From assembly GCF_003144115.1 (NCBI RefSeq), contig NW_020312004.1:118269-182268 (forward strand): DNA of 64,000 nt. The letters run 5' to 3'. The notes under the pieces are model-generated. The model searched no databases. It saw only the letters and a list, made by a program, of their open reading frames with translations, and was not told the origin of the DNA. The DNA is from Tilletiopsis washingtonensis. Taxonomy: Eukaryota > Basidiomycota > Exobasidiomycetes > Entylomatales. The position numbers were made by a program, and so were the translations under genes. Each line of letters starts with the position of its first letter. Positions within the stretch are counted from its first letter, which is position 1. Positions 9,934-51,665 of the stretch are shown here, piece by piece.

Positions 9934-12900
9934 CTAGAGCAGCATGCTGTTGGACGTCATGTTGGGCTGGCCAATCGAGACGCCCGAGAGCACGCTGCTG
10001 CGGCTGCCGCGCTTGCGCGAGCGGTTCTCGGCGGCGCGCGGGCCGTAGGCGTGCGAGCTCGTGTACTGCTGCGGGCGCTCGTACTCCTGCGCATACGAGC
10101 TGGCGCCGAGGGCCGCGACGATCTCGGGTGCCGAGCCGCCGTTGGCCGCGAGGTAGCTCTGCTGGATGCGCTGCGCCTCCGTCATGCCGCTCTCGCCGCT
10201 CGGCACGAGGCTGGAGCCGCCGCCCGAGTGGCGCTCCGTGCCGATGCTGGCGCGGTTGTCGACGGCCCACGAGTCGTTGAAGGGGTCGCTCCAGATCTCG
10301 GCGTGCGGCTCGTGGCGGCTCATGCGCGCGGCACCGGCCAGCGCCACGCCGTCGACCATTGCCATCTCGGGCGCGCCGTGGCTGTAGCCGTGCTCGGGCG
10401 AGTCCCACGTCTGCGTGAGCTGCTGGCCGTGCAGCACGCGCTCCTGCTCGGCCACACTCGGCGCCCACGTCTCGCGCAGGCCGCCGCCATTGCCGCCGAA
10501 GCTGCGGATCGTGTTGTTGCGGCCGAGGCCGGCCTGCGGGCGCGGCGGCGCCTTGGCCTTCTGCTGCTTGCGCCACACGCGCCAGCCGATGACTCCCGCA
10601 ATGACGGCAACAAGCGCAGCAGCAACGCCGATGAGGGCATTGCGCAGCGTCGCGTTCGAGTTGTTGGGACTCTGCGAGCCCGTCACAATCGACGACTTGG
10701 CCTGGCCGCCGCCGACGAGGATGTTGAACGAGGGGTCGACGTTGGCGGCAAGCTGCTTGGCCACGTTGTTGGGCGCCTGCGTGTAGAACGCCGACGTGGG
10801 GTCGGCAATCTCGGCCTGCAGCGTGTCGGCGAGGTTCGAGGGCACGTAGGCGACGAAGAGCGTCAGCGCCTGCGTCTCGCTCGTGGCGCCGGGCGGGTAG
10901 TAGGACTGCAGCCGTACGGTGACGATCGAGTCGGACGAGAGGCCGATCGCCTGAGCAGGAGGTGGTCAGTGAAAGTCCGAGGCTGCAGAGGCAGGCGACT
11001 CACAGTGGCGATGAGGGCGGGCATGAAGGCAAAGACCTGGGCCGTCGTGTCGGCATTGGAGGCGAGCCACGTCCAGCGCATCGTCGGCTTGAGCAGGATG
11101 GCGACGGGCGTCGTGCCGTCGGGCTGCACAAAGGCAGCGTCGGCAGGCACGATGGTGCTGGGGTACTTTGCCGTGATGGTAGCCGAGACGCCGACGGCCG
11201 AGTCGCTGGGCGAGAGCGGGATCAGGCCGTTCGGGTCCGTCTCGACGATGCCGGTGGCCTCGGGCAGGATGAGCGACGTCGTGTCGGCGTACCAGTAGCC
11301 GCTCGTCGTCTGCGGCGGCTGCTCGGCGACCGGCACAGCGGCCTCCGTCGTCGTAGGCAGCGGTGCGAGGCCGTCAGGTGTCGTCAGCGTGCCAGCGACG
11401 CCGTAGTCCGTCGTGGTGGCCACGGGAGCGGCAGCAGCGGGCGTGGTGGCGGGCTGCGGTGCCTCGCCGGCCTCGGTCGTCTGCGGCGTCGAGCTCTCGT
11501 ACGGAGCAGCCGTGTTCTCGGGCTGGCTGGGCGTGCTGGCCGGCTCGTCGGCCTGCGTCTGTGTCGGCTGCGACGGCGTGTCCTTGTCGCTAGACGTGGG
11601 CTCGGGCTGCGACTCCTGCTCGGTCGACGAGGGCGTGCCGGTGAGTAGTCCACCAATGCCGCCGATGAGGCCACCGTCCTTCGACGACGACGCCGGCTGG
11701 TCGGCATCCGACGTCGGCGTCGGCGTGGGCTGGTCCGCGTTGCCCGAGGGTGTCGTCGACGTAGCCGAGTCGCCGCCGCCGGTGAGGAGTCCGCCGACGC
11801 CGCCGATCAGGCCGCCGTTGTCGTTGTCCTTCGTCGACGTCGGCGTGTCGCTGGAGCCGCTCGTGTCGGTCGAGTTCTGCGAGCCGCTCGAGCCCGAGCC
11901 GCCAGTCAGCAGGTCGCCGACCGAGCCGAGCACGCCATCGTTCTTCGTCTGGTCGCCACCCGACGAGCTGGTGTCGGTCGAGTTCTGGCCGCTGCTGCCG
12001 CTGTTGTTGCTGCCCGAGTCGCTGCTCTTGGTGCCGTCGTCGCCCGTCAGCAGGTCGCCGACCGAGCCAAGCACGCCGTCGTTCTTCGAGGACGTCTGGT
12101 CGCCGCCCGACGAGCTCGTGTCCGTGGAATTCTGCGAGCTGCCGCTGTTGCTCGAGCTGCCCGAGTCCTTGGAGCCGCTGTCGCCAGTGAGCAGGCCGCC
12201 CACGGCGCCGAGCACGCCAGTGTCCTTCGACGACTGGTCGGTGTTCGACGAGCCGCTGTTCGACGAGTCGGTCTGCGTCGAGTCCTGCGAGCCGCTGTTG
12301 TTCGACGAGCTGCCCGAGTCGCTGCTCTTCGAGCTGCTGTCGTCGCCGGTGAGCAGGCCACCAACAGCGCCCAGCACGCCACCGCCGCTGCTGTCGCTCT
12401 GCTGGCTTGTCGAGGTTTTCTTTTGCGAGCCCGACGAGCTGTCCGTCGAGTTTGACGAGGACTGGTCCGACGAGCCGGACGAGCTGTCGCTCTTGTCGCC
12501 TGTCAGCAGCGTGCCAACACCGCCAAGCAGCCCACCATCGTTCTTGTCGCCCGAGCCGCTGCCGCTGTCGCTCTTGGTGTCCTGCGAAGACGCGGAGTTG
12601 TCCGACGAGCCCGACGTCTGCTGCGACGACGAGCTGTCCGTGCTGTCGCTCTTGTCGCCCGTGAGAAGGGTGCCGACGCTGCCCAGCAGGCCGCCGTTGG
12701 AGTCAGACGAGGACGAGGACGAGTCGCTGTCCTTCTGCGACCCCGAGCTCTGCTTGTCTGCATCGCTACTGTCTGACTGGCTGGACTTGTCCGAGTCCGA
12801 CGACTTGCTGTCGCTCTTGTCGCCCGTCAGCAGGTTGCCAACGCCGCCGAGCAGGCCGCCGTCGCTGCCCGAAGAGCTCTTGCTCGAATCGTCATCGTCC

Positions 12901-13247
12901 GAGTCGGACTTCTGCGCTGTGGGTGTAGGCGAGTCGTCTGCGCTCGACGACGTGCTCGTAGAGTGCTTCTCGTCGTCCGAGGAGCTGGTAGATGTGGAAG
13001 AGGGCGCAGAAGTCGACGAAGTCGTCGAGTTGCCGCTCGAGCCCTGGTCCGACGAGTCGACGCCGAGGGCCTTCTGGAGGTCGCCAATGACGCTGCGCGA
13101 GCGCCACGCTGGCCGCGCGCCGGCGCCCTCGCCCGTGGCACGGCGCGCCGCGACGCCGTTGCGTGCATGCGGCGGCGAGGTGAAGTTGGCGCTGGCGAGC
13201 GAGCCGGCGGAGAGCGCCAGCACGAGGAACGACGCCGAGAGGCGCAT
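9934..13247 (-). CDS. MSB2: Msb2-like signalling mucin with nine internal repeats
   Basis: A 1086-residue type I membrane protein in two exons (13247-11004, 10950-9934). Signal peptide at residues 1-20; a Ser/Thr/Asp-rich mucin region (about 65-645); a conserved extracellular module (about 650-830) with QVFAFMPALIATAIGL, LTLFVAYVPSNLADTLQAEI and the DPTSAFYTQ..VDPSFNIL stretch; one transmembrane helix (about 853-871, LIGVAAALVAVIAGVIGW) followed by RVWRK; and a cytoplasmic tail of about 215 residues. This order and the membrane-proximal module match fungal Msb2, the surface sensor upstream of Cdc42 and the filamentation/appressorium MAP kinase. The tail is longer than in yeast. Unusual: nine glycine/leucine-rich blocks in the mucin part, listed separately. 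No GPI signal is seen. Msb2 is my best reading; a different mucin sensor is possible. Confidence 0.75.
11625..12863 (-). repeat. Nine degenerate ~50-residue repeats inside the mucin domain
   Basis: Within the mucin, a 16-residue hydrophobic block recurs nine times: examples are LLGGVGNLLTGDKSDS, VLGAVGGLLTGDDSSS and LIGGVGGLLTGGGDSA. The copies begin near residues 131, 187, 240, 291, 345, 392, 439, 480 and 527, so spacing is 41-54. Between them lie Ser/Asp/Gln-rich spacers without hydrophobic residues. At DNA level the copies have drifted, so the array is an old internal expansion that has been kept in frame. Confidence 0.9.
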
Positions 13248-15955
13248 CGCGGCGAGTGCGCGACGGGCGCAGGGCGCTCAGGCGATGCGAGAGAGGTGCA
13301 GAGAGAGGGTCTCGGCAAGGTGCGCTGCGCTTGGTGCTGCAGCGAGAGACGCGCGTGGAGAGCGCAGAGCGCAGGCGGAGAGAAAGGAGTGTGTGTGTGC
13401 CGGCAGGCAAGAGTAGACGGCGTGACGAAGCGGCGAGAGGAGGGGTCGTGACGGAGGCTGGAGAGAGTGAGCGCGCGAGGGGATGATGGAGGAGCAGCGT
13501 GAAGGGGAGGCAGCCGTGAGAGCGAGCCTGGCGGTGTGCGGGTGTTGCACCGTGGATGGGAGTGATGAGGAGGGGAACGAGCGGCGGCAGAGCGGGAGAG
13601 GGGCAAGCACGGCGCAGCGAGAGAGGAGGAGCGGCGCGGCGCCAGTCTGTGTGCCTCTCTCTCGGCGCGCCTTCCCATGCGCAGCGGCACGAGAGCAGCG
13701 CAGAAGCTAGCGAGCGTTTGTGGCTGCGCTAGTGCCCGCACGTTGCTCTGCAGCGGCGCGCCTGCAGCGACCGCGGTGCGTGTTGCGCGTCTGCTGCTCC
13801 CGTGCCTCGCTCGCCACGAAAGGCAGGTCTGCGGCGCGGGGCGGCGGCGAGGGAAAAGAAGCGCGGCGGCGCTGCGCGGAAGACTTCTCTGCCGCCCCCG
13901 CCACGGCGTGCGGCGTCCCGGCAAGCACGTCGCGAGAGCAACACGCTGCGCCCTCCGCCGGGGCATTTACGCCTGCTGCTCGCCTGCCCGCACCCGCGCC
14001 TGCGGACTGAGCTGGTGCCCGCGCGGCACGCCAGAGAGCGGAGCCGGCGGCGAGCCAACGCGCACTTCCATTCCCCGCCCGCGCCCGCCTCGAGGTGTTT
14101 GCTCCCGCAGAGCAACAGCAGCAGCAGCGCAGCAGGGTGCAGCAGCAGCGTCCCGAGGTGCGAGCGCTGGGTGGCAAGCGATGTGCCAGCTCTGGCACGC
14201 TCGCACGCACGCCGTGCAGACCATTCTTGTGCCGTCGGCCGGCGGCGGGAGGCGGCGGCGCCTCACCCTGGCCCGAGAGTGCGTCTGGGCGCTGAACCTG
14301 CTCCTGCACCTGAACGGCACGGCATCGTCGCCCTCGAGCGTGCCGGCAGCAGCATCCAGCAGTGCCGGCGGCGAGTGGACACAAACTGCCGCTGCCGGCA
14401 CCCGGTCTGCAGTGCTGCGATGTACCTGCAGGGCAGCACCCCTGTCTGTGTTCGCAGGGCACAGGCGGCGCGCCGCCCTCGGAGCCACAGCTTTGCGTAG
14501 CGCTGGCGTGCTCGGCTGCCATCGAGGCGGCTAGCGCACCACACCTGCTGCTGCTGACGCGGCCATTGCGCCCGCGCTAGGCGCCAACCCTCTTGACTGC
14601 CAGAGGGGAGCCCTCTCGACTCATCGGAGGCCTCTCTGCGATCCGTGCAGCGAAGGTCGCAGTTGCATTCCAGCCTCCTCACTGATCAGTGGGAGTCCTG
14701 CTGCGCGACGCATGAGCTCGAGAGAAAGAGCAGACGCAACTGCAGGAGAAGAGGGGAGCGTGCGAGCGACGCGCGTCGTGACAGCTGCAGCGCCAGCCAC
14801 AAGAGGCGCCTCCTCGCGTCCGTGGCGCCGGCGCATGAACGGGCCTCAAGGGCGCGCTCGCAGCGGCCTTGCCCGCCCAGAGCGATGCTGCGCTCCGCCG
14901 GACTGATTGATCGTCGAGCGCCGTCAATGCTCCGCAATCAAGCCCGAACTCGCCTTCGACAGCACGGTTCGCGCCCATTTGGGAGAGCAGGAGCAGAACG
15001 GCAGTGGCCGCACGGTCGCTTGTCCCGACGCTGCGCACGGGTGGCGTGCTCCACTCACGCCCTGCGTGCCATGGCATGCTGCTGCACTTGCGTGGCTGCA
15101 CAGGCGTGCAAAGAGCATACAGAGCGCATGCACGACTGCCGAACGGTCCATGTCGCCACTGGTGCTGGGCGTGCACCAGGTGTCGTGGCGGAGCTGGGCT
15201 GCGCCGCAGGCTCCGAGCGCCTCGAGTGCTGCGTGCATCGCCTGCATCCTGCGCTGCGGCTCTCAATCGAATCGAACGGCACGCTCACCACGTCCGACGA
15301 GCTGCCGCACCTCTGCATTCTGCGCCGACTCACCGCTGCGCTGAGCGCACCAGATCAGGCAGGTCGGCGTCGGCGTCGGCTGCGGCGCATGCCCGTGCGC
15401 CTCAAGCGTGAGAGCGAGCCGCACAGCGTGCAGCATGCAGCCCCTTGACGAAGCATGAAGGCGCGCAAACGTCAAAGGCTGCTTGCGCCGCAGTGACGGC
15501 GAAAGCAGCGGGGCTGAATGATGGGCGCGAGCTCGAGGGCGGAGTCCGAGGCGAGCGAGGAGACACGTCGGATGGACGAGGCGCACGCCTGTGATGCCGG
15601 CGGGCTGCAAGTCGTGGGAACCAGCAGGGCAGCGTCGCTCTTGAGCGCCGCTCGGGGTCGGAGGCAGCTTCGCACAAGGCACGGAGAACGGGTCGTTTGC
15701 TATTACTTGCGAAACATTGCTGAGTGTGGAGCTCGATGGTGATGGTGATGGCCCGCCAGAGAGATGGCGAGGCGTGAGGCCGGAGAGACGGTACAGGTGG
15801 CACTAAGGATACAGCTACAGATGGAGAAGCGACAGTGTGATGTGCGGGGGCGCAAGGGTGTCGGCGCCGACGAGACGATGCGGTTGTGTGGTGTGAGCGG
15901 ACGGCGAAAGACAGTTGCGATGTTGCAAGAGAGGAGGCGGAACCTTCGGAGACGT
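13248..15955. other. Long intergenic region upstream of the mucin gene
   Basis: About 2.7 kb between the mucin start (minus strand) and the stop of the MIF4G-like gene (minus strand). The first 425 nt (13248-13673) are purine-rich on the plus strand, meaning CT-rich in the mucin's sense direction, and carry no ATG in that direction, as expected of a 5' leader. The remainder has many overlapping Arg/Ala/Ser-rich frames in both directions and a short CAG-rich run (14111-14150). I find no supported gene or RNA; the length suggests an extended promoter for a regulated sensor. Confidence 0.5.
14111..14150. repeat. Short CAG-rich imperfect repeat
   Basis: Two runs of AGC/CAG triplets, 14111-14130 and 14139-14150, separated by a few other bases. 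Low-complexity sequence in a non-coding region. Confidence 0.7.
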
Positions 15956-22477: not shown

Positions 22478-25159
22478 TTACTCGTCGATGTCCATCTCCT
22501 CCTGCTTGGGCGCCTCCTCGGCCTTGGGCTCCTCCTTGGCCGGCGGCGGCGGGGCCTGCGTCGTCGTCGTGGGCTTCCGCTGCGACCTGCGACGTGCGAC
22601 AAGTCAGCATGTGCTCCACACGCTCGTCACCCGCGCTACTCACATGATCGGCACGCAGGTGTAGATGACGTCGTCGCGCTGCTTCTGGATGGCGGCCGTC
22701 GTGATCTTGGGGTTCTCGTTCTTCGGCAGCTCGGACTGCTTGAAGAGCATGTCGCCGAGCCACTTGTCGGCGTTGGCGCACTTGTCGACAACCTTCTGCT
22801 TGTCGGCCTCGCTGATGTGCTCGTACTTCTCGTCGCCGCCCGTGGCCTGCGTCATGTACGTGTTGATCGTCTCGCGCAGTGCCGAGGCAGCCTTGGGCCG
22901 CTCCTCGTTCTCGCTCCAGCGGAACGCGATCGGGTCGCCAATCTTCTTGAGCGCGTCAAGGTGCTCGACGTAGGCGCTCTTCAGCGCGTCCTCGCCCTCC
23001 TCGGAGTAGAGCCACTCCTCCTGCTCGTTGAGCGCCGCGAGGTACTTCTCCTTCTCGTCGGCCTTGACGAACGCCTTGTAGCGCTCATCGAGGCGCGAGC
23101 GCTGGTCGTAGATGAACTCCTCGAGCGCGTTCTTGCGGTCCTCGGTGTCGAGCACCAGCTTGTCGCTGGCGTACATCTGGCCCTCCTTCTCCTTGAGCTC
23201 GGCCAGCAGGCTTGCCTCCTTGCCGCCGAGGCCCGAGACGATGGGCAGGTCGTTCTTGCGCTGCACCTTCTTGACCTTGCGCTTCTCCGTCTTGGGCGCC
23301 GCGCCGTCGGTGTCCATGGCGGCCGCGTCGACCGGCACGTCCTCCTCCTTCTCCACCTCCTCGACGACGTAGGCGCTCTCAAAGTTGAGCACGCCGTGCA
23401 GGTTGAGACGCGCCTTGACCTTGACGATCGAGTGGTCGCCCTGCGCCGTGGGCGTCACGCCCTTGATCTGGAAGTCGCCGAGCCACGGGTTGATGCCCTT
23501 GGGCAGCGCGTCCGGCTCGGCGTAGTGCGCCGAGAGCGCAAACGGCTCCTTGCGGTAGAAGGTCATGATCTTCGTCGAGGGAATCGGGTTGTTGGGCTGG
23601 AAGACGACCAGCTCCGTGTCCTCGTCGGGCACGTCGGCCGCCTTCTCCCAGGTGACCTTGATCGGGTAGGCCGTGACGTCGTGCACGGTGAACTCGCGCA
23701 CCTTGAACACGGGCGAGAGCGAGGCGCAGGCCAGCGTGCAGCCGCGGCACACGGCCTCGTCCTGGTTCGACGTGAAGCTGAGCGTCTTGCCGAAGAAGGC
23801 GGCGACGCGCTCCTTGAGCGCCGGCACACGCGAGCTGCCGCCGACGACCTCGACGGAGTGGATGTCGTCCTTGGTGAGGCCGGCCTGCGCGAGCGCCGAC
23901 TCGAGCGGCTTCGTGACGCGCTCGAGCAGCGGCGCAATGAGCTCCTCGAACTCCTCGCGCTTCAGCTGCGACGAGGCGTCGATGTCCTCCATCAGGCTCT
24001 CGACGTTGAGCGGCGCGAGGGCGTTGGCGGAGAGCACCTTCTTCAGGCGCTCGCAGCCGGCGGCCAGCCGGAAGATGGCCTTCTGGTTGGACATGACGTC
24101 GATCTTGTACTTGGTCTTGAACTCGGTGGCGAAGTGCTGCAGCAGCGCGAGGTCAAAGTCGCGCCCGCCAAAGTGGCGGTCCGAGGCCTGGCCCAGCACC
24201 GTCAGCTGGCCCTTGGAGAAGGCCACGACGGCGACCTGGTAGCTCGAGAGGCCAAAGTCGCAGAAGACGACGTGGCGCGGCGCGTCGGCCTCGGGCAGGT
24301 CCGTCTTCGTGATGCCGTAGCCGAGCGCCGTTGCCGTGGTGTCGTTCATGAGGCGCAGCGGGTTGAGGTTGGCAATGGCGGCGGCGTCGAGCATGGCGCG
24401 GCGCTGCACGTCCGTGTACCACTGCGGCACGGAGATGACGACGTCCGAGACGGCCGAGCCGCCGAGCTCCTTGCTCGCCTGGTCGCGCATCTTGCCCAGG
24501 TACATGCCCATGAGCTGCGTGGCCGAGAACGTCTGCGGCTCGTTGGCGAAGCGGACCTGCAGGAGCGCGTCTGTGAGCACGGCCGCGCCCAGGGTTGGCT
24601 GTGCTGCTCGCCACTCACCTTGACGCCAACCTCGCCCTGCACATCGACCAGCTCAGCGTTGATGAACTTCTTCTCCTCCTCCTCGAGGGTGGAGAGCGTC
24701 CGGCCGAGGATGCGCTTGAGGCTGCCAATCGTGTTCTTGAAGTTGGACGTCTGCATGGTGGCAGCGCCCTCGCCAATGGCGCGCGACTTCTGGCCGAACG
24801 AGATGAGCGACCTGCAGGTCAGGGTCAGCAGATGTCCCGCCCGGAGCGATTTCGATGCAACGCTGCGACAGTTGTTGGCAGAAACAAGTCGCGAGCTCGT
24901 CATTGCAGCATCGCACACACAGGCCAAGGCATGCCTGCCTCAAGCACAGCTCTTGCGCGCCGCGACGCCTGCCTGGCTCCCCTCTGACCTCGGCCTTGCC
25001 GCACCTACAACTCCACATCGCTTCGGTATACATGCCCTCCGCTACTCACGGGGTCAACCGCTGCGAGCTCTCGTTTGCGAGCACGTCGACACCGCGTGCC
25101 CGTGCGGCACCGATCTTGGTGGTGCCGCATCCGACGTCGATTCCGACCACAGACGACAT
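22478..25159 (-). CDS. SSE1: Hsp110 chaperone / Hsp70 nucleotide exchange factor (Sse1)
   Basis: Cytosolic Hsp110 that releases ADP from Hsp70 and holds unfolded protein. Four exons (25159-25050, 24811-24619, 24556-22644, 22586-22478) give 774 residues. The N-terminal ATPase begins MSSVVGIDVGCGTTKIGAAR and continues with PSLISFGQKSRAIGE, NTIGSLKRILGR, FSATQLMGMYLGKMRDQA, VISVPQWYTD and VEVVGGSSRVPALKERV. TPSLISF in place of the Hsp70 pattern, an acidic loop in the beta-sandwich part (VEKEEDVPVDAAAMDTDG) and the long C-terminal helical domain separate it from Hsp70 itself. The C terminus ends EEMDIDE. Divergent from the SET-domain gene. No clear heat-shock element could be read by eye in the 383-nt promoter. 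Confidence 0.95.
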
Positions 25160-25542: not shown

Positions 25543-27407
25543 ATGCCAGACGAGACAGCGCCGGCCGCCGAGGAGCGCGAGTTCCTGCGCTGGTTCGCCG
25601 AGCGCGGCGCCGTTCTCTCGCCGAGCGTCGCGCTGGCCAGCTTCGCCGGCATGGGCCGCGGCATGCAGGCGCTCGAGGCGCTGCCCGAGGATGCGCTGCT
25701 CTTTGCCGTGCCGCGCGCCATGCTGCTCGGCACGCGCACCTCGGCCCTGCCGCGCCTCGCGCTCGCCGAGGATGCCCGGCGCCGCGGCGACGGCATGGAC
25801 ATCGACGACGACGAGGCACAGCCGGGCACCTGGCAGCACCTGCACCGCCAGGGCTGGGCGCAGCTGCTGCTCGTGATGCTCTGGGAGCGCTTCCGTGCCT
25901 CGGAGCGCGGCCAGGCGGCATGCGCTGCCTTCGACGCTGGCGCCGACTGGGGCGCCTACTTTGGCATCCTGCCCAAGCACTTTGACACGCCCATGTTCTG
26001 GTCCGACGCCGAGCTGGCCGAGCTCAAGGGCACCGCCATCGTCGGTGAGCTGCCGCGGCACACTCGTATCTGGCACCTACTGACGCTTCGCTCGCAGAGA
26101 AGATCGGCAAGGAAGAGGCGCACGAGACGTACGAGAAGGACATCTTTCCATACATCCAGTCGCACGCCGCCCTCTTCCTCGGCTCGCTGGCGGCGGAGCA
26201 GCCTGACGCTGTGCCTGCGCTGCTGCAGGAGTTCTACAGCGAGCCGCTGTTCCACATGATGGCCTCGGCCGTCCTGTCGCGCTCCTTCCACGTGCGCAAG
26301 CCCGAGCCGGGACAGCAGCCGGGCGCAGAGGGCGCAGAGGGCATGGTGCGGCCAGGCGACCGCGGCGTCGAGCTCGCCGCGCCGGCAGACGAGGATGAGG
26401 AGGGCGAGAATGGCGACGAGAGCGAGCTGCACATCGACAGCGACAGCGACAGCGACGCCGATGCCGACGAGGCAGAGAACATCGACGACGTGTGCATGGT
26501 GCCCATGGCCGACATGCTCAATGCGCGCTTCGAGACGGACAATGCGCGCGTCTTCTACCACCTCGACAAGCTCGAGATGCGCACCACGCGCGCGATTGAG
26601 AAGGGCGAGCAGCTCTGGAACACGTACGGCGACCCGCCGAACTGCGATCTGGCGCGGCGCTACGGGCACGTCGATGAGCCGAACGGCGCAGACGTTGGTG
26701 CGTTCCGTGGCGCATCCCTTGGTGACGCGGCTGACACTCCCTCACCAGTCGAGCTGCCGATCCTGCGCGTCGTCGATGCCATCCTCGCGCTCGAGGGCGC
26801 CGCAGACCAGGCCGAGCGCCGCACCTCGCTGCTCTCGCGCGTCGAGTGGTCCGTGGCCGAGGGACTGGACGAGGTGCACGCTCTGACGTACCTCTTCGCG
26901 CCCTCGTCCGAGCCGCCTCACGCGCCTGAGCCTGCCAAGGCCTCGTCGTCCGAGCTGCGCGCCGCGGCGGCCTCGGTGGCAGAGGAGCTGCTGGTGCACA
27001 CGCGCCTGCTGCTGCTCGATGATGCTGCGTACGAGAAGGTGCAGGCGAAGGGCAAGCTGCCGAATGCGCGCATCGAGGCGCGCGAGCCGGCGGCAGGCAA
27101 GACGCTCGGCGTGGCCGAGGTGCTGCTCAAGGCCATCGACCTGCGTCTGGCCGAGTATCCGACGAGCGAGCAGGAGGACTCTGCTCGGCTATACGGCGCG
27201 GCTGGGCAACAGGCCGAGCAGGGCATGTCGGCGAACCTTCGCGCGGCGCTCGTGGTGCGGCTGGGCGAGAAGCGCATTCTAATAGACAACGCACGCGTCC
27301 TCACGGCAGCGCACGAGGCTTCTCTCAAAATCGCCGCTGCGCCGGCGAAGGGCTCGAAGCGCAAGGGAGCAGAGACGGCCGGGGCCTCAAAGAAGGCGCG
27401 GAAGTAG
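25543..27407 (+). CDS. RKM4: Rkm4/SETD6-type SET-domain lysine methyltransferase
   Basis: Predicted protein-lysine methyltransferase; yeast Rkm4 methylates ribosomal protein eL42. Three exons (25543-26044, 26098-26697, 26749-27407), 586 residues. The SET domain is split by an acidic insert, as usual in this class. Visible parts: FLRWFAERGA and GRGMQALEALPEDALLFAVP at the start; GILPKHFDTPMFWSDAELAE; then VPMADMLNARFETDNARVFY, TRAIEKGEQLWNTYGDPPNC and LARRYGHVDEPN, which hold the cofactor-binding Asn and the catalytic Tyr region. A Rubis-subs-bind-like helical C-terminal domain follows. The tail is Lys-rich (KKARK), a possible nuclear signal. The acidic insert (about residues 245-300) is longer than in yeast. 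SETD6-like substrate choice is equally possible. Its stop lies 77 nt from that of the convergent fusion gene. Confidence 0.8.
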
Positions 27408-27484: not shown

Positions 27485-30400
27485 TCATGCTTGCGCCTCT
27501 TCCTCCTCGTCCGTCTCGAAGCCATCCTCGTCTTCGTCCTCGTCTCCCTCCTGCTCACCGTCAGCCGGCAGCTCAGCTCCGGGGCCCCACCAGCCGCGCA
27601 GGGCATTGGCGAAGGCCGCCACCACGCCGCCTTGCTCGTCACCGCCCTCCTGCTCCGCGACGCGGCCGAAGCCGCCCGGCGGCTCCTCCTCGTCCGCGCC
27701 GCGCTGGCGTCTTTGCTCCGCAGTCATGTGCATCAGCTCGGCGAGGAGGTCCTCCTGCAAGATGGAGGCTGTCAGTCAGAGCTGGCAGACAGCGTCAGAG
27801 CTGCACTCACGCGTGCCTCGTCGTCCATGTTCTCCATGGCCGCACCCCACTCCTCGAGGCCGTTGACGCCGCGCAGCATGCCCATGAGGTTCTGCAGCGC
27901 AGCACCGATGCCGCCGGGCGGCATGCCGGCAGCTGCAGTGCGAGAGCGCTGCCGCTCCATCTCCTTCTGCAGCGGCTGGAAGTAGGCGTCGTCGTAGCGT
28001 GTCGAGCCCTCTGTGGTCGGCGGGAGCGGGTCCCACGCATCGAGCGAGTCGCCACCGCCAGTGACCGCAGGCGGGAAGAAGCCGATGAGCGTCTGCCGCA
28101 GAGCGTCCGGAACTGAAGTTGGGCAAGGGTGAGCATGTTCCGCGCAACACGGGACAGGCGCCTCTGCACTCACGATCCGAGACGAGCACGTGGCGATAGA
28201 CCGACCTTCGCTGCTCCTGCGATGCGACGGCAGGCTGCAGCTTCTTCGCGCCGTCTCTGAGTACAGGCCATGCCTCGTTGAGCGTCTCGCTGAGCCACTT
28301 TGACGTCGGCGCCTCGCGCCACAGGCTCTCGCTGCGTGAGACGTAGACGTTCGACAGCAGCAGCGAGAGCGTGTCGGTCTTGTTGGACCAGCGCGACGCG
28401 GGCACGGAGAACACCTCGTGGCTCCGCATCTCGGGCGAGAAGGCAAGGCCGATCTTGTCGAAGAGCAGCGGAAGCAGGCAGGGATGCCGCGCGATCGCCA
28501 GACGCAGCGCTGCTGTGCTTCGCTCGCCAGTCTGTCCATGGAGTCAGTCGAAGTTGCAGCATGGTGGCAGAGGGCTGCTCACCTTGTCGCCGTCCTCCTT
28601 CTCCTGCGCGCGCAGAGCCAGTGCGCGTGCGTACTGGATGCCGACGCACCAGTCTAGCGCGCCCTGTGCGCCCTGCGTCTCGCCAACGAGCGCCTTGTCC
28701 TTCTCGTCGAACGGCGTCCGGGCGCTGAGGACACTGGCGCCGCTGTTCTCGACGCCGCGAGCGACCGCAGCGTCGAGGCGCGGCAGCATCTCCAAGAACC
28801 AGGAGTGCTGCCGCGCCTTGATGCTGAGGAAGTCGAGCCACAGCACGATGGCGTGGGGATCGGCAGGCGCATCAAGGCCGAGCACGAGCTTGGCCCACTC
28901 GAGCGCCGTCCGCCACGTGCCGCGGCGGCCGAGGAAGTTGATGTGCCGGTGCGCTGCGAGCCAGAAGCCCCGATTCTCCACGCCGCCGAAGTCGAGCTGC
29001 GGCGGGCCGGACGCGGACGTGAGCGCGCCCGTAAAGGCAGGCAGCGCTGTCCGCTCGTAGGCGAAGAGAGCGCGAGAGTTGAAGTCGCCCGCTTGACCGA
29101 GATCTCCTTGATGCCGCGAGACGTCAGAGAGCTGGAGCAGCGTGTCAATGTGCCACGGATAGCGCCGCGTGAGCGCCATCAGCTGGTTCGGGTCGTATCT
29201 GCGGCGGCGAGATCAGCACGAGACAGGCATCGGCGGGCGAGGCGTACGCACGACTGGACCGCCTGCAGGAACTGAAGCTGTGCTTGCCGGTAGGCTCTGC
29301 AGCGGCGTCAGTATTGGACGGCTGACGGCTTGGCTGGCAGCTCACCGGCTGTGGACCCAGGCTCCAAGGCGACCCCGTCCCTCGACATCGTGCAGCTCCA
29401 TATCGATGCCAGTGAATGTCCGTGCAATCGGCGGCCATGTGTCGGCCGGCTGCACGAGCACATTGCGCACGCGAGCATTCGAGTTCCACGCCTGCGCTCG
29501 GGCACGCGCCAGCCCAGACGCCGAGCCGTCGTTGGTGCCGCCGTGCTCGGCCTCGTACGCGCGGATGGCGGCGGCGCCGAACTGCCGCTTGAGCTCGACG
29601 GTGGGATCCAGAGCGGGTGCTGCGAGCGCCAGGAGCGGCCGCAGTGCCGAGATCGGACCAGTCGGTGCAGGTGCCGAGGCGAACTCCGCGTCGCACTCAG
29701 TTGCCTTCGAAGAGCTGGCCTCGGATGTGCCGGCCTGAGAGGCGAGCAGCTCGGAGAGCTCAGACATGCTCATGCTGCCGATGTCCTTGGCGCCTTCTGC
29801 CTTGCCGGTTGTCTTTTTGCCTGCAGCCTTGCTGGGCTTCTTCTTGCGCTTGCCGCCCTTGGCTCCCTCTCCCGCAGGTGCACTCTGCTGCACCTCTGCA
29901 GGTGCCGCAGCGGGCTCAGCTTCAGTGGGCTGAGCCTCCGTTTGGGTATCGACAGCTGGCGCGGCGGCAGCCTTCTTCTTCTTCTTCTTGCGGCTCGACT
30001 TGCTTTTCCGCGGCGCAGCCGAGAGGTCGTCATCGTCATCGCTGGCTTCCGCGCCTGCGTTGGCATTCAGCTGAAGGAGTGCGTCAGCGTGCGCGCTCGG
30101 TCGTCCGGGGAACGGCAACGGCCACTCACAGCTGCGAAGAAGCTTGCCTGGCCCACCGGCTGGCTTGTCTCGGCCTCATTCTCCTCCTCTCCCTCTTCAT
30201 CGTCCTCCTCTGTCTCATTCTTCTCGGCCGGAGCAGGGTCTGAGCCTTGCGCAGCGCCTGCCGGTGTCTTCTCGAGCGCGACGACGTCGTCTGCTTTCGC
30301 AGCGGGCACGCTCTGCGCAGCCTCGGTCTTGTCTCCCGCAGCCTTGTCGCTATCGACTGCTGCAGCCTTCAGGCTCTCCTCCCACTCGCGTGCGAAGTCT

Positions 30401-31575
30401 GCAATGCCCTTGCCCTCGCTGCGCTCGAGCAGGTCGCGCGGCACCATGTTGTGCGCGTGCGTAGGCGCGGCCTGGTTCGCCTGCGTACGGTCTGTGAGGA
30501 TGCGCAGCTCCGGCAGCTCGTCGGACGTGCCGCTGCTCTCGTGCAGCTGCTCGGCTTTCGCCTCCACTTCGTCCCAGCTCCAGAGCAGCGCATCAGTGCG
30601 CGGCAGGTACGGGCCGACGTCGACGAGGAAGACCTTCTCCATGCCGCGCGTCAGGTAGGCATCGAAGGTGAAGTCCGGGACCGAGAAGCCAGCATCGCGG
30701 CCGGGCTTGGCGCCCGGCGGCGGCGTCCTTGGCTTCAGGTGAGACTCGAAGAATTCAGCGAGACGCTTGCGAATCGTCGTCTGGATCGACGCGGGCTGCA
30801 GGTGCTCGTAGAATGTCCGGTCGCGCTGCGTGGCGCAGAGCAGACGGCCAGCGCGCACAAAGCAGCGGAACTCGTGCGACGGCGGCATGTCGAACCACTT
30901 CTTCAGCACGAGAGAGCACGGCACGCTCTGCAGTGCCACCTTTGGCGCAGAGGTGGACACGCTGACCTCCATCTCGTCGCTGGCGGCAACTGATGCATCG
31001 GCGGCGGGCGCGGACGTCGGACCCTGCGAGGACTCGAACAGCACGCGGGCCTGCTCGATGTCCGAGGTGATGAAGTCGGACGACTTCAGCAGCATGTAAA
31101 CGTCTCCTGGGGTCGTGCAGCGCAGCGTAGAGCCAGGCACGATCCAGGCGGCATCCTGCACTGGCGTGTGAGCCTCGCGACGTCACACGAGCATGCTGTC
31201 GGCATGAGAGGCACTCACCAGCGGCGCGCTCCAATTGAGCTTCGGGAAGCAAGCACCATCGTACGTGCTGATGACCTCTCTGATGCGCGCATCGAGCTTC
31301 GGAAAGCTCGTGGGTGCGCGCTTCGGCTCGTCATCGTCGTCGCTCTCGCTCTCCGCCTCGTCGTCTGACTCCTCGTGCTCCTTGCCCGCCGGGCGCCCGC
31401 TGCCCTTGGGCAGCACGAGGCCGTCCTGGTCCATCCACTCGAGGAAGTCCGGCTGCAGCGAGAGCACATCAACGATGGTCGCCTTGGGCGAGACCTTGCG
31501 GAAGTTGGGGTACCACGAGGTGAAGAGCGTGGCCTGCAGCGCCGGGCCGGGCGCCGTGAGCGGCGGGAGCGGCAT
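27485..31575 (-). CDS. CDC123-TCF25: CDC123-TCF25 (Rqc1) fusion protein
   Basis: One continuous reading frame in eight exons (31575-31219, 31155-30130, 30070-29346, 29296-29252, 29198-28583, 28531-28174, 28112-27811, 27754-27485), 1232 residues. Residues 1-390 are CDC123, the ATP-grasp chaperone that assembles eIF2: LFTSWYPNFRKVSPKA, FPKLNWSAPLDAAWIVPG, VLKKWFDMPPSHEFRCFVR and TDALLWSWDEVEAKA. After an acidic linker, the frame runs without a stop through an intron (30129-30071) into TCF25/Rqc1, a ribosome quality-control factor: a KKKKKK tract, WPPIARTFTGIDMEL, AYRQAQLQFLQAVQSYDPNQ, RYPWHIDTLLQLSDVS and GVENRGFWLAAHRHINFL. The tail is acidic. No TCF25-type N-terminal start is seen in between. 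The upstream start is uncertain; MPLPPL is the first Met before the conserved part. Confidence 0.8.
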
Positions 31576-31976
31576 GTCGGCGGGCAGCTGCTGCGCAGCG
31601 GGTGCGTCAGGTGTGTGCTGGCTGATGAGCTCAAAGCTGCTGCAAGTGGAAAGAGAGGCTGTCGCGAGTGAGAGGGGTGATGGTCGTGTCGAGAAGAGCT
31701 GACACCGGGCTGCAGCAGACGCAACTTCTTCGCCGCGCGCGAGGTGGAGGCAGGGTGGAGCTGTATTCAGGTCTGTGCCCCGCTGTAATGAGAATACAAA
31801 GCGCGCGCAGCCCCTGAATAGACCCTCGCACGGGTGTTGCTGTGCTCGGCCTCTCCACACCCGACCACCACCTCGCCGTTTCCCATCTCTGCCTCTCTCA
31901 TCCACCCGAGCGGACGCAGTTGCGCTTCACCTCACAGCGCACTCGGCTGTAGGCACCGCAGCCAGCGCGTGCTCTG
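31576..31976. promoter_or_regulatory. Divergent promoter, CDC123-TCF25 / GCK kinase
   Basis: 401 nt between opposed starts. The half next to the kinase is CT-rich without obvious TATA. The half next to the fusion gene contains a possible acceptor (a pyrimidine tract and CAG near 31640), so a non-coding or short first exon of the fusion gene may lie here. Confidence 0.4.
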
Positions 31977-34900
31977 ATGGAGCCGCCGCTGCTGCCCACC
32001 GCTGCCTCGCCGCCACGGCGTCTCCTGTCGCAGCCGCAGCCGCCGCTGCTGCTCGCCCGCTCCAGAGGCGCGACTTACAACGCTCCGTCGTCCGCAGCCG
32101 CCGACGGCCCGTCACGGCTGCCCTACGGCGCAGTCGTTGTGCCCGCCCGGCCGCCGCACCGCCTCTCCTTCTCCTCGTCTGCCGCGCCGCGGCTGCCTGC
32201 CGGAGCGGGCCTCGACGAGACCTTTGCCTCTGACTCGGACGAGGAGCCGCAGGTTGCACCGCTGCGCGTGCGTGACGCCAGTATGGGCGAGGCGAGTCGT
32301 CCGACGTACGTCGCCGGTGCTGCCCTCTCCGCCTCCTCGTCGCACGATGGGCCGCTGCATCGGAGCGTCAAGCGGCCGGGGTACCAACACAAGCGCGCCG
32401 CGTCGAGCATAAGTGCAGGCAGCGCAGCATCCTCCAGCACAGGTCCTCGTGCGCCCTCGACACCGCCATCCTCGATGCCGCTGCATGACGGCTCGTCGCC
32501 GATGCATCGGCCATTCACGCGCGGTGAGGCCGAGATGCTGGAGGCGCTGCGTCTGGGCGGCGGAACGACGAGCACGGGCCCGCACTCGCCCAGCTCGGTC
32601 ATGCGTCGTGCGGGCTCCTCGATGCGCCGCGCCAGCTCGGACTTCAAGCGCATGCTGGCCTCGAGCGGCGCATCTGGCAGCGGTAGGCGCAAGAAGGAGG
32701 GCGGCAGTGTCGACCTGCCTGCGCCGACGCCGCGCTATGATGGTGCGGTGGGCGAGGCTCCACCGCTCTGGACGCTTGGGCGTGGTTCGACTGAAGAGCT
32801 CTCAGACCAAGAACTCAGTAAGCCGCATCCCAGCTGGTGGTCTCCAAGCCGCACGCCGTCGCCTGCCACCTCAGCGGGCGGCGCCTCTGCGCACTCGCGT
32901 CCCTCGTCGCGCCGCTTGTCCTTCATCTCGGCAGCACGGGTGCAGGCGCAGCTCAACGCCATGCCAGTGCCAGAGGCGGAAGGCGAACACTTTGAGTTTG
33001 CGCCGACGCCAGCGAAGCCGGATGACGACGACGGCAGCAGCAGGGCCGCTCGGGCACTGCGCAGCCTCAAACGAGCGAGCAACGGCGCGCTCAGAAGGGC
33101 CAGCTTTGCGAGCGCCTCCAGCGACGGCCCGCTGTACACGCTGCCACCAACTGCGAGCCCGACGCCTAAGGTCATTCTGCTGCCAGAAGAAGGACAGCCT
33201 ACGCATGCGTATGCCACTCCAGATCGGACCCCGTCGCGGGGCCGCGCAGGCTCCGAGTCTGCCACTCCACGGGCGATAGACAACCGACTACTGCTGCAGC
33301 AGCCAGAGTCTCCTACCGATGGGCGCAGCTCCGTCACGCCTACTCCTGGATCCGCAGCGCCTGTGCTGGCCTCTCCCTCTCCCACGCCTGGCAGCCGCGG
33401 GCCACTGGGCGCGGCTGCTGTGTGGCGGCGAGCACAGAGAGAAGCGAGTGCTGCGGCCTTGGAGCGTGGCGCACCGATGCTCGACGCAGCGCCGCCTGCC
33501 GTCGCTGCCGAAACTTCAGGACCGCCGGCTCGAGGCGCGCCTTCCTCTGCAAGGTTGCCACGAGCGGCAGCCAAGTCTAGCGCAGACAGCAGCGCGGGCG
33601 AGGGCGGCCGGACGGGAGGTGACATGGTCGGCGTGGGCGCTGGTGGCGGCGCTGGAGGTCCACGAGGCTGGGGAACAAGAGGCACCAGCAACGGCGGTGG
33701 AGGCGACGCAGCTGGAGGTGGACATGGCGGAGCGGGAGGAGGCCGCGGGCCACCGAATGGCCGGAACGGGGCGCCTGCCGCAACCAACGGATCTGGCTCC
33801 CAGTCGCTGCACTCGCTGTTCCGGCGGCAAGAGTTGGTCGGACGAGGAGCGTACGGAGCGGTGTACCGCGGCGTGCACGTGCCGACCGGCGGCGCCGTCG
33901 CTCTGAAGGTAGTGAATCTGGACACGCCGGAGGACGATGTGTCGGACATCCAGAAGGAGGTCGCGACCTTGACCCAGCTGCGCGACGCGGAAAGCAAGAA
34001 CATCGTGCGCTACTGGGGCTGCTGGCTCATCAAGACGGAGCTGTGGATCGTGATGGACTTTGCCGAAGGCGGCAGCGTGCGCACAGTGGTGAGTCGCAGC
34101 CCGGCCGTCCTACTTTGCGATGCAACTCACCTTTCCCCGCTCAGATGAAAGCTGGCCCCTTGTCCGAGCGCTTCTGCGGTCTCGTCGTGCGCGAGTCGCT
34201 CGTGGCCCTGTCCTACCTGCACAAGTCCGGCATCATCCATCGCGACATCAAGGCTGCCAACATCCTGCTGACGGTGCAGGGCCGCGTGCTGCTCTGCGAC
34301 TTTGGCGTCGCAGCGTCGCTGGTCTCGTCGAGCGTGCACGCCAAGCGCTCGACGTTTGTGGGCACGCCCTACTGGATGGCGCCAGAGGTCATCACCGAGG
34401 GCAAGACGTACGACCAGAGCGCCGATATTTGGAGCCTGGGCATCACGCTCTACGAGATGGCGTGCGGCAACCCGCCGCACGCTGAGCAGGAGCAGATGCG
34501 CGCAATCATGCTCATCCCGAAGAGCAAGCCTCCGCGCCTGCCGGTCGACGGCAACTTCTCGCCGCTGATGCGCGACTTTCTGGCGATGTGTCTCAACGAA
34601 GAGCCGCGCGAGGTGAGCACAGCGTGTCGCTGCTGGCTTATGTACTGCGCTGACACTCGTGCAGCGACCCAACGCAGACGAGCTTGCGAAGAGCAAGTGG
34701 ATCAAGAGCTTTGCCAAGACGCCCAACTCTGTGCTCAAGGAGCTGCTCAACAACTACACCGCATGGACCAAGAGCGGCGGCATGCGCATGAGTCTGCTTG
34801 GCGCCGAGGCTGCTGACCTGAACGACGCTGGGTGAGCGACTGTCGGCACGTACTGTCCACTGCGCCTGCTGACAGTGTCCACAGTAACCGCGACTCGTTC

Positions 34901-47084: not shown

Positions 47085-49128
47085 TCTCACCCTCGTTCTC
47101 TCACTCTCTCACCATCATCCGTGCCGCACCCACGCTCCCCGCACCTACTCTGCGTGGCCAGGCCCTCATCTTGCAGCACCCTGCAGCGCCTCGACTCGGC
47201 GCCCACGCCGTGCTGACGCATCACGTTCCAGGTGAGACTGGCAGGGCGGGAGCGAGGGGCACGTCGGGTGGCGCCCGATACGAGTGCAGTGGAGTTGGCG
47301 CGCCGGCTGCACGCAGAGACTGAGAGAGAGCGCTCGAGAGGCACGCGGCGGCGCGGGCTGGGGCTGGGGCCGCCATGTGCGCCAGAAGCAGACGGCAGGC
47401 GGCCAGCACCACGGCTTGCGGGCGCGCGCGCGGCGCACGCTGGCCGAGGCGGGCAAGAGAGCAGCGAGCTGCAAACAGACTCAGCCACAGCGAATTGCCC
47501 GACGCGCGTCCTGCGGCGGCGCGGGCGGCGCGCTGGCTGAGGGCGCGCGCCGCACGCATTTCTCTGCGGGCCCCTCTCTTACCCGTGGCAGGCGGCGCGG
47601 TGCGCGCGCCGTGTCGGCGCTCTCGCCGCGCGCACATCGCCGCTCCGCTGCCTCTGCCGCACCGCGCTCGCAGCAGCAAGCACAGGCCTCGCCTCGCCGC
47701 ACCGGGATGACAGGTGCGCCAGACGAGACCCTCCCGTCCGGCACGCCTGTCAGGCCTGTCGTGCGCACGCGTGTCTCGGACTCCATTGCATGCGTCGTCG
47801 AGGCCCATACAAGAAGCACGGGTGCGCCATCGGCGGCCCGGCATCACCCCCCTTTTCGCGCCCGCCGTTGCAGCTCTCGCTGACCCGCGCCGGCGTCCAG
47901 CCTTCCCACGCGTCCCAGCGCGCGGCACACCCGCGGCCACCGCAGAGCGCCCGCTCGTCATCGAGCGCAGCGCCGCCCGCTGCCCGCCGCAGGACCTCGT
48001 CCTCGTCTGCTCGGCACACCACGACGGCACACTCGCCGTCACACCGTCGGCCTCGCACCGCCCGTCGCCGCCTGGCCTCACTCGGGACCCGGACACCTTC
48101 CGACGTCTCGCTGCCGTCCGATCCCGGCCAGCAGAGTGCGCCTTCAGGGCTTCGACCGCTCCCTCGTTCCGACCACCGGAACCTCGCACCGTCGACCGAC
48201 GCTCGAGGAGCATCGATAGCCTCGGCTATACCTCTGCTGTCTGCTCGGAGCCGCTCATCGATCCGCACTGCCTCGTGCTGCAGCACATCACACCGACGGC
48301 TTGCTCCTCGTCCCAGGTCCACAGCCGCCCGTTCGAGATCCGCATCTCGCAGACCGTTCTTCGGTCCGCCCCCGTCGCGCCACAGCGACGCCACCACCAC
48401 CTCGCCGAACCCCTCGGCACACGACAGGAGGCTCTCCGCGCCTCCCTGCCTCCGTCGTCAGTTGCACTTTGACGTCAGGGGCACAGCGGAAGAGCGACGC
48501 AACGTCAGCGAAGAGTGGCAGCCTGCCACGCCTGTCTTGCGGCTGCTAATCAGTCGCTGACGCATCTCCGCGCGTGGCGTGCACTTGCGATCGCTCGGGC
48601 ACCAGGCACCAGACTTGATCCATCGTCGTCGTCGCCGACGCCGAGGCACGCACCGACACACGTCGTCTGCTGTCACATCACTCCTGTGTTGCTCTCCGAC
48701 CACTGTGTCGGCAACTGCACGGCCCCTCTCGCTCGCCCAGGCCCTTACTCGGGCCCGCACTGCGCCCGGAGGCCTGCACTCGGGCACGTGTCAGGGGTCT
48801 GCGCCGACCTCTCAACGCTCATTTAGCGAGTCGTCCATCAGCTTCGCTGTGTGCCAAAAATAGCTGGCACCCGACGTTGCAGACGGCCTGCACGCGACTC
48901 CTCGGACGTCACCCCTGGCGCCGACCGACCGGGAGCTATCCCTCTGCCTCGGACCCGCTCAAGTGGCCCCTTGACGGCTCTGCGTCAAATCGACCCGTGC
49001 CACTCATTGGCAACCCCTCTGCCGAGACTCTGCCGTGGAACATCTCTCTGCGGCCAGCGAGAAGGATATAAGGAGACCGCTTTGGCGTCGTCTCACTTTC
49101 TTCACGCCTTTCGCCGTCTCTCACCTGG
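47085..49128 (+). promoter_or_regulatory. Probable long spliced 5' leader of the homeobox gene
   Basis: Model: transcription starts near the CT-rich tract at 47075-47115; a first leader exon without ATG ends at 47231 before a GTGAGA donor; an intron (47232-47873), which contains several ATGs, ends in a pyrimidine-rich acceptor (CCCCCCTTTT then TTGCAG); a second leader exon runs 47874-49128. Reading every line of 47874-49128 on the plus strand I find no ATG at all before the start codon at 49129, and C clearly exceeds G. This depletion is what scanning ribosomes select for in a leader. The exact start site and intron are inference; a TATA-like site at 49067 allows a second, proximal start. Confidence 0.5.
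49067..49073 (+). promoter_or_regulatory. TATA-like element upstream of the homeobox gene
   Basis: TATAAGG, 56 nt before the ATG, followed by a CT-rich stretch. In this GC-rich sequence such a motif is rare. It could drive a short-leader transcript in addition to the longer leader. Confidence 0.35.
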
Positions 49129-51320: not shown

Positions 51321-51665
51321 GAGCTGCGTGGGAAGCAAAGAGCGGGCGGTCGTGGCTCTTCGCTAGATTCGGTTTCACTCCTCAGCTCATCATCTGTTGA
51401 TATCCCCGGTCGCATACACCTTTCACCATCGGCCGTGCTCTCAGTCCTCCTCTGCTGTACCACCATCCGCACCCCTCCTCTCTATGCACTTCTCTCTCTT
51501 CCTCTCGCATCCCTTCTTGCACGCCTCCGCCGTCTGGGCTGCTCGCTCAGACGGCTGGCGCCTTCGCCACCTGACCATGCCTGTACCACCCCTTCGCGCG
51601 CCTCGCCAATGCACCTTGAAGTCTGTCCGCTGCAAACGTGTCTGATTCGACTGTCTATGATGAAA
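51321..51665. other. Convergent 3' regions, homeobox / amidotransferase
   Basis: 345 nt between two stops, CT-rich on the plus strand, which fits a homeobox 3' UTR. No further gene seen. Confidence 0.45.

What the first reader, a model, noticed from the sequence alone, without database searches (positions are those of the whole stretch)
27485..31575. CDC123 and TCF25/Rqc1 joined in one gene
Seen: the CDC123 frame (31155-30130) runs without a stop through an acidic linker to a canonical GTGAGT donor; the next exon (from 30070) continues in phase, after a CTGAC branch site, into TCF25. The junction reads SFFAALNANAG, and both sides fit the N-terminal part of TCF25, so the splice lies inside TCF25 and not between genes. 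No alternative TCF25 start Met with the usual Lys/Arg-rich beginning is present. Known: CDC123 builds eIF2 and TCF25/Rqc1 works with the Ltn1 ribosome quality-control complex; in yeast they are separate. Inference: one polypeptide may couple initiation-factor assembly with nascent-chain quality control, or be processed afterwards.
Basis: partly seen in the sequence, partly recalled or inferred. Interest (0 to 1): 0.78.

Follow-up and report, generated by a model that had tools for sequence, protein, structure and literature searches.

The report
Two translation-factor genes fused in fungus
In a fungus, one gene appears to encode a single long protein that joins a factor that helps build the machinery for starting protein synthesis (CDC123) to a factor that helps destroy failed protein products (TCF25/Rqc1), which are separate proteins in yeast; it still needs RNA and relatives' genomes to prove it.

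Summary
An eight-exon model on the minus strand (31575-27485) gives one uninterrupted 1,232-residue frame with near-complete CDC123 (Pfam D123, E 5e-86) and TCF25/Rqc1 (Pfam Tcf25, E 5.5e-93) domains. Codon content says the join is coding: 0 of 1,925 overlapping off-frame stretches of the gene are both open and score as high. The intron inside the join (30129-30071) resembles the other six and has the best-scoring of 14 acceptors nearby. New: the CDC123 half has Leu119 where human CDC123 has ATP-contacting Arg111, and Asp-Val-Gly where the two aligned relatives have Asp-x-Asn, so its ATP site is altered. Whether the halves cooperate is untested. No relative was found, but the collections searched hold prokaryotes, viruses and plasmids, and no transcripts are at hand. 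I judge a real fusion protein likely (about 0.75); functional coupling is open.

The parts
31219..31575 (-). Exon 1: start Met and N-terminal part of the CDC123 domain; ends with Leu119, at the position of human Arg111
   Evidence: no Met upstream of it in the open frame listed (31926-31183)
31156..31218 (-). Intron 1, 63 nt
30130..31155 (-). Exon 2: rest of the CDC123 ATP-grasp domain (DVG motif at aa 298-300) and an acidic, Ala-rich linker to aa 461
30071..30129 (-). Intron 2, 59 nt, inside the join; GTGAGT donor, CTGAC branch, CAG acceptor; if retained, the frame ends at TGA 30069-30067 and gives CDC123 alone
29346..30070 (-). Exon 3: acidic then Lys-rich segment (RKKKKKK at aa 488, KRKKK at aa 535) and the start of the TCF25/Rqc1 domain
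29252..29296 (-). Exon 4 (45 nt), TCF25 domain
28583..29198 (-). Exon 5, TCF25 domain; holds nearly all of the stretch (aa 716-855) that matches Rqc1 of PDB 9ofv
   Evidence: aa numbers
28174..28531 (-). Exon 6, TCF25 domain
27811..28112 (-). Exon 7, end of TCF25 domain
27485..27754 (-). Exon 8, acidic C-terminal tail and stop codon
30177..30218 (-). Alternative Lys/Arg-rich Met starts (ATG at 30218, 30200, 30179) in a shifted frame; they enter the TCF25 frame through other, weaker splice sites
29771..29773 (-). First Met in the TCF25 frame downstream of the join (aa 561); a possible internal start that would drop the Lys-rich segment

Best explanation
A real gene fusion in a fungus. One eight-exon gene is transcribed and spliced into one mRNA that is translated into one 1,232-residue protein: an N-terminal CDC123-type ATP-grasp domain, a long low-complexity linker (acidic, then Lys-rich, about 320 residues), and a C-terminal TCF25/Rqc1 domain. 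The domains most likely fold and act independently on the two ends of a flexible tether. The CDC123 part holds eIF2-gamma during eIF2 assembly; the TCF25 part works with the ubiquitin ligase Ltn1 on stalled 60S subunits. Because they share one chain, they are made 1:1 and are destroyed together. In yeast Rqc1 is lowered by Ltn1 after translation (PMC8102910, abstract and passages); if the same holds here, Ltn1 activity would also lower CDC123 and so eIF2 assembly, tying initiation capacity to quality-control load. Shown by sequence: the open frame, both domains, splice signals, coding-like linker. Inferred: one mRNA, one stable protein, co-degradation, coupling.
For: Uninterrupted spliced frame. 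Both domains almost complete: profile 1-298 of 300 and 3-337 of 337. PDB relatives Cdc123 (4zgn, 8phd) and Rqc1 (9ofv, E 1.6e-10). Linker codon score equal to the cores and reached by 0 of 781 open off-frame stretches; in 30432-30130 the fused frame is the only one of six with a positive score. The intron acceptor at 30071 is the best of 14 AG sites near it; the intron is 59 nt among introns of 49-63 nt, with a CTGAC branch site. No Met in the TCF25 frame of exon 3 before aa 561.
Against: No transcript, peptide or relative with the same order. Alternative starts exist, and all three Lys/Arg-rich ones have A at -3 where the fusion's own start has G. The usual N-terminal TCF25 motif (recalled as M-S-x-R-A-L-R-R-L; from no call) is not seen in the fused frame. 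The linker's synonymous codon bias is weaker than the cores'. The lack of poly(A)-like hexamers in 30450-29900 says nothing, because the 200 nt after the gene's own stop lack all eight too. Two changed ATP-site positions mean that CDC123 activity is not assured. The Ltn1 effect on Rqc1 is known to me only from yeast.
Confidence: 0.75

Rival explanations
1. Two adjacent genes that only look joined: CDC123 ends by its own transcript end in the linker and TCF25 starts inside, at one of the Lys/Arg-rich ATGs (30218, 30200, 30179) with another splice, or at Met561 (29773).
For: Of 111 single-intron models that reach the TCF25 frame, 21 begin at these three ATGs, seven routes each. All three have A at -3, the fusion's own start G. 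One of their acceptors, 29994, scores third of 14 (3.7). Merged neighbours are a common annotation error in compact fungal genomes (general knowledge).
Against: None of the 21 uses acceptor 30071. From donor 30129 they need 30042 (score -8.3, lowest of 14, 88-nt intron), 30003 (-1.2, 127 nt) or 29994 (3.7, a GAG, 136 nt, nearest CTNAC far upstream), against 7.0 and 59 nt for 30071; the other donor, 30156, scores 3.5 against 6.9. Their frame scores -0.43 with one stop over 30432-30130, the fused frame 0.65 with none (frame assigned). Met561 would drop the Lys-rich segment. 15 ATGs precede 30218 in the CDS, so an internal promoter would be needed. The remaining 90 of 111 models begin at five Mets of the CDC123 frame.
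Confidence: 0.15
2. One gene, two products (compatible with the fusion): intron 2 is a switch. Spliced, it gives the fusion; retained, it gives CDC123 alone (481 aa, ending at TGA 30069-30067).
For: The retained frame ends at a TGA one base after the acceptor (coordinates). Intron 2 is 59 nt, not a multiple of three.
Against: The splice sites are good, so retention may be rare; the stop would lie upstream of five more introns, which could trigger decay of the mRNA (inference). TCF25 alone would still not be made.
Confidence: 0.15
3. The CDC123 half is a diverged copy that no longer uses ATP normally, serving as an eIF2-gamma-binding tether for the TCF25 half, while another intact CDC123 gene does the essential work (compatible with the fusion).
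For: Arg/Lys to Leu119 and Asp-x-Asn to Asp-Val-Gly300. In plants D251N, at a conserved residue described as responsible for ATP binding, and in yeast a mutant of the 'DIN' sequence, weaken eIF2-gamma binding (PMC10898606, passages). In a model of the human protein Arg111 contacts the beta and gamma phosphates (PMC12860950, section 3, part 1).
Against: Lys112, Asp284 and Asp298 are kept. 44 of the 115 columns shared by the human and fission-yeast proteins differ here (43 changed, 1 gap), so the Asn change is one of many. No close fungal sequences to tell lineage habit from loss. No genome is held for the window, so a second copy could not be sought.
Confidence: 0.2

Closest known systems
CDC123 / Cdc123 (eIF2 assembly factor; Pfam D123; PDB 4zgn, 8phd)
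   Same: Nearly whole D123 domain, conserved PKLNWS, KSSDF, EFRCFV, QRD and PxDxxxxSxG segments
   Different: Followed by another protein in the same frame; Leu119 for Arg/Lys and Gly300 for Asn in the ATP site
TCF25 / Rqc1 (ribosome-associated quality control; Pfam Tcf25; PDB 9ofv)
   Same: Nearly whole Tcf25 domain and a preceding Lys-rich stretch
   Different: No free N-terminus; CDC123 sits where the usual N-terminal start would be; the segment before the domain has no detectable match to PDB Rqc1
Other fungal gene fusions, such as SPDS-SR of basidiomycetes (PMC10051792, search listing and abstract start only)
   Same: Two house-keeping genes, separate in other fungi, joined in one frame
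   Different: The SPDS-SR partners are metabolic enzymes (spermidine and lysine biosynthesis); here the partners act at opposite ends of translation

Membership tests
CDC123 (R2K.1 ATP-grasp) | Full D123 domain | tested here: met
   Pfam 289 bits, profile 1-298 of 300
CDC123 (R2K.1 ATP-grasp) | Absolutely conserved Lys (human K104), Asp (D233) and first Asp of DxN (D246), as named in PMC4431377 section 5 | tested here: met
   Lys112, Asp284 and Asp298 align (numbers checked; human numbers assigned by counting along the aligned segments)
CDC123 (R2K.1 ATP-grasp) | Second Lys/Arg in the loop after K104 (taken by me as human R111) that names the R2K clade | tested here: not met
   Leu119 against Lys and Arg in the two aligned relatives
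CDC123 (R2K.1 ATP-grasp) | Asn of the DxN motif (human N248) | tested here: not met
   Gly300; Asp-Val-Gly against DIN and DFN. PMC4431377 notes that other polar residues occur there at times
CDC123 (R2K.1 ATP-grasp) | Binds eIF2-gamma and supports eIF2 assembly | not testable with these tools
   needs experiment
TCF25 / Rqc1 | Full Tcf25 domain | tested here: met
   312 bits, profile 3-337 of 337; Rqc1 9ofv E 1.6e-10
TCF25 / Rqc1 | Lys/Arg-rich segment before the domain (PMC8102910, passages) | tested here: met
   RKKKKKK at aa 488 and KRKKK at aa 535
TCF25 / Rqc1 | Free N-terminus with M-S-x-R-A-L-R-R-like start (recalled, no call) | tested here: inconclusive
   not seen by eye in the fused frame or at the three shifted-frame starts; the segment before the domain has no Rqc1 match in PDB up to E 10; the motif itself is recalled
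TCF25 / Rqc1 | Works with Ltn1 on 60S | not testable with these tools
   needs experiment
Gene fusion (one polypeptide) | One uninterrupted spliced frame with a coding join | tested here: met
Gene fusion (one polypeptide) | One transcript and protein observed | not testable with these tools
   no RNA or proteome data
Gene fusion (one polypeptide) | Same order in related species | tested here: inconclusive
   no relative found in eight searches, but the collections are of prokaryotes, viruses and plasmids

The most novel reading that the evidence does not exclude
The fusion is a direct physical coupler of translation initiation and ribosome-associated quality control: a CDC123 domain with an altered ATP site holds eIF2-gamma while the TCF25 domain engages Ltn1 on stalled 60S subunits, so that stalling lowers eIF2 assembly without the eIF2-alpha kinases.
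Probability: 0.12. Interest if true: 0.85.

Novelty: new variant of a known kind. Interest (0 to 1): 0.5.

Why it matters
Stalled-ribosome quality control and the control of initiation are known to influence each other: Hel2 restrains Gcn2, and the stress response that lowers initiation also restrains quality control (PMC12868832, passages). Genes fused in evolution tend to be genes that are used together (PMC9925542, abstract), so a natural fusion would hint that CDC123 and TCF25 belong to one circuit, and would make that testable in ordinary yeast. It also raises the question of how a CDC123 with an altered ATP site can work.

Tried and rejected
Relatives: genome contigs was scanned twice (with CDC123 exon 2, with a TCF25 stretch) and viral contigs four times (with the TCF25 stretch; with CDC123). 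The only hit, L001 (23% identity over query residues 98-170), lies on the strand opposite to a listed frame, beside frames that I read as phage tail genes, and is rejected as chance. Plasmids with the whole protein and phages with the CDC123 half by tblastn: no match. These collections are not of fungi, so absence says nothing about fungi.

Own genome: none is held for this window, so a second CDC123 or TCF25 copy could not be sought. ARAGORN and Rfam at gathering scores found nothing in the window. The promoter/terminator scan is of bacterial type and was not used as evidence. Poly(A)-like hexamers were dropped as evidence: none of eight occurs in 30450-29900, but none occurs in the 200 nt after the gene's stop either, and they are nearly absent from the window.

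Papers: CDC123 with TCF25, 2 papers, unrelated by title; Cdc123 with Rqc1, none; gene fusion, fungi and CDC123, 2 papers: PMC4431377 (passages) speaks of fusions of prokaryotic members, and PMC7662794 names CDC123 only in its reference list; Cdc123 with quality-control terms, 20 of 315 listed; gene fusion in fungi, 20 of 64 listed; fungal names, 15 of 2,183 listed. The last three are not exhaustive. UniProt and InterPro, where a domain order could be looked up, are not at hand, so 'not in print' is claimed only for these searches. The main paper on TCF25 and K48 specificity is not held. Passages of PMC12592149 were seen and not used.

My first splice model was wrong at intron 4 (donor taken at 29247 in place of 29251) and broke the frame; it was corrected. 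The output was cut; one search repeated the search with a full tally. A structure prediction was not run, because the two-exon CDC123 part is not one contiguous reading of the window and a one-exon model without relatives would be poor.
Full report
What is there. On the minus strand of the window an eight-exon model runs from Met at 31575 to the stop at 27485. It is 3,699 nt of coding sequence and 1,232 residues (133.4 kDa), with no internal stop. All seven introns are 49-63 nt, begin GTGAGT, GTGAGC or GTGCGT, end CAG, and hold a CTNA[CT] branch-like site 11-17 nt from the end. Pfam lists two families at an E limit of 10: D123 at residues 21-363 and Tcf25 at 699-1074, both almost complete. By sequence the nearest solved structures are Cdc123 (4zgn, 4zgo, 4zgp, 8phd) and the quality-control subunit Rqc1 (9ofv). 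That 4zgn is from fission yeast, 8phd from human and 9ofv from baker's yeast is recalled; the calls print molecule names only. The organism is a fungus: Pol III RPC1 in the window matches PDB chain 5fj8_A at 838 bits and 7a6h_A at 747, and an Hsp110-type protein matches SSE1 best (the animal chain there is partial); that 5fj8 and SSE1 are yeast and 7a6h human is recalled. The small introns and 67.6% GC suggest a basidiomycete, but this too is recalled knowledge and no call places it further.

Is the join real? The Cdc123 match runs to about residue 379 and Tcf25 starts at 699. The stretch between is low-complexity: acidic and Ala-rich, then Lys-rich with RKKKKKK at 488. An open frame of 80 codons is not rare in this GC-rich window (7,334 of 18,218 sampled stretches), so openness alone is weak evidence. 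Codon content is stronger. The 80 linker codons before intron 2 score 0.55 bits per codon against 0.54 and 0.49 for the two cores on which the score was trained. Of 1,925 overlapping off-frame stretches of the gene, 781 are open and none of these reaches 0.55; across the window, real genes included, 327 of 7,334 open stretches do. On synonymous choice alone the linker is only weakly coding-like (0.10 against 0.28 and 0.25); 10 open off-frame stretches and 1,347 open stretches of the window equal it, and this counts against over-confidence. For a slightly longer span, 30432-30130, which includes 20 codons of the CDC123 core, the fused frame scores 0.65, while the other five frames score from -0.02 down to -0.91. 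The intron acceptor at 30071 is the best of 14 AG sites within reach, scored on the gene's other six introns. The next, 30055, is close (6.6 against 7.0) but does not lead from the CDC123 frame into the TCF25 frame (frame arithmetic from the coordinates). That scoring rests on six introns only and gives one accepted intron (28582-28532) an acceptor score of -7.7, so it is rough. Poly(A)-like hexamers are absent from the join but also from the 200 nt after the gene's own stop, so they decide nothing.

First, alternative starts with Lys/Arg-rich beginnings do exist at 30218, 30200 and 30179. They lie in a shifted reading of the acidic linker. A full tally gives 111 single-intron models that reach the TCF25 frame: 90 start at five Mets of the CDC123 frame and 21 at these three ATGs, seven routes each. 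From donor 30129 the 21 need acceptor 30042 (score -8.3, lowest of 14), 30003 (-1.2) or 29994 (3.7, third of 14, but a GAG and a 136-nt intron); the other donor, 30156, scores 3.5 against 6.9. In their favour, all three ATGs have A at -3, while the fusion's own start has G. I consider them unlikely but not excluded. Second, a Met at 561 is in the TCF25 frame and could serve an internal transcript without the Lys-rich segment. Third, the junction segment has no match to Rqc1 in the PDB at an E limit of 10; its one hit is an unrelated cytochrome at E 2.4. So 'both sides fit the N-terminal part of TCF25' is a statement about composition. Fourth, if intron 2 is retained, the frame ends at TGA 30069-30067 and makes CDC123 alone (481 residues).

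The CDC123 active site. Burroughs and colleagues (PMC4431377, section 5 read) name K104, D233 and D246xN248 of human CDC123 as the ATP-grasp residues, and a second Lys/Arg in the loop after K104 as the mark of the clade. A 2025 paper (PMC12860950, section 3, part 1 read) models Arg111 against the beta and gamma phosphates; that Arg111 is the clade's second basic residue is my inference from position. In an alignment with the human and fission-yeast segments, the window protein keeps Lys112, Asp284 and Asp298, but has Leu119 where the others have Arg or Lys, and Gly300 where both have Asn (numbers checked). Leu119 is the last codon of exon 1, and I see no other GT donor that would change it (by eye). 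In plants a mutant of a conserved ATP-binding residue (D251N), and in yeast a mutant of the DIN sequence, weaken eIF2-gamma binding (PMC10898606, passages). Against making too much of this: 44 of 115 columns shared by the human and fission-yeast segments differ here (43 changed, 1 gap), and without fungal relatives one cannot say whether Leu and Gly are this lineage's habit.

How it most likely works. A single chain with two independent domains on a flexible tether. CDC123 is needed for eIF2 assembly (PMC8844851, passages). Rqc1 is needed for Ltn1-dependent ubiquitination in a yeast cell-free system; the same paper cites an earlier study with purified complexes in which it was dispensable (PMC5562442, passages). 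Rqc1/TCF25 promotes K48-linked chains (PMC12868832, passages). The minimal consequence of fusion is 1:1 production and shared fate. In yeast Ltn1 lowers full-length Rqc1 after translation (PMC8102910, abstract and passages); in a fusion this would remove CDC123 as well. That is inference. A review describes cross-talk between quality control and the stress response that limits initiation (PMC12868832, passages), which makes coupling plausible but does not show it.

What could not be done. No genome is held for the window; no RNA data exist here. Eight collection searches found no true relative: two genome contigs and four viral-contig scans, plus tblastn of plasmids and, for the CDC123 half only, of phages. 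That is expected for a fungal gene in collections of prokaryotes, viruses and plasmids. Six of the ten paper searches looked for a link of the two genes or for such a fusion and showed none; three of these lists were capped and the held library is partial.

Verdict. The second and third rivals are compatible with the fusion, so the odds given do not sum to one. Interest 0.5: a notable fusion of two known translation factors, not a new kind of system.

Noticed in passing
window 10863-13277, minus: Long Ser/Asp-rich frame (804 aa) with a repeated GGxGxLLTGDxSDS-like unit, seen by eye; no Pfam match up to E 0.001.
   Followed up: no
window 26049-27407, plus: Frame with a Rubisco-LSMT substrate-binding domain and a weak SET match below Pfam's cut-off, convergent with the fusion gene; 77 nt lie between the two stop codons, so the transcripts probably overlap (inference).
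   Followed up: partly
window 31953-34148, plus: Protein-kinase frame in divergent orientation upstream of the fusion gene.
   Followed up: no
window 2804-5365 and 22640-24652, minus: Pol III largest subunit RPC1 and an Hsp110/SSE1-type chaperone, used to place the window in the fungi.
   Followed up: partly
window 49072-51366, plus: Long frame with a KN-type homeobox.
   Followed up: no
window 30064-30069, minus: At the intron-2 acceptor the retained frame reads TGAATG, a stop directly followed by an ATG, but this ATG is not in the TCF25 frame.
   Followed up: yes
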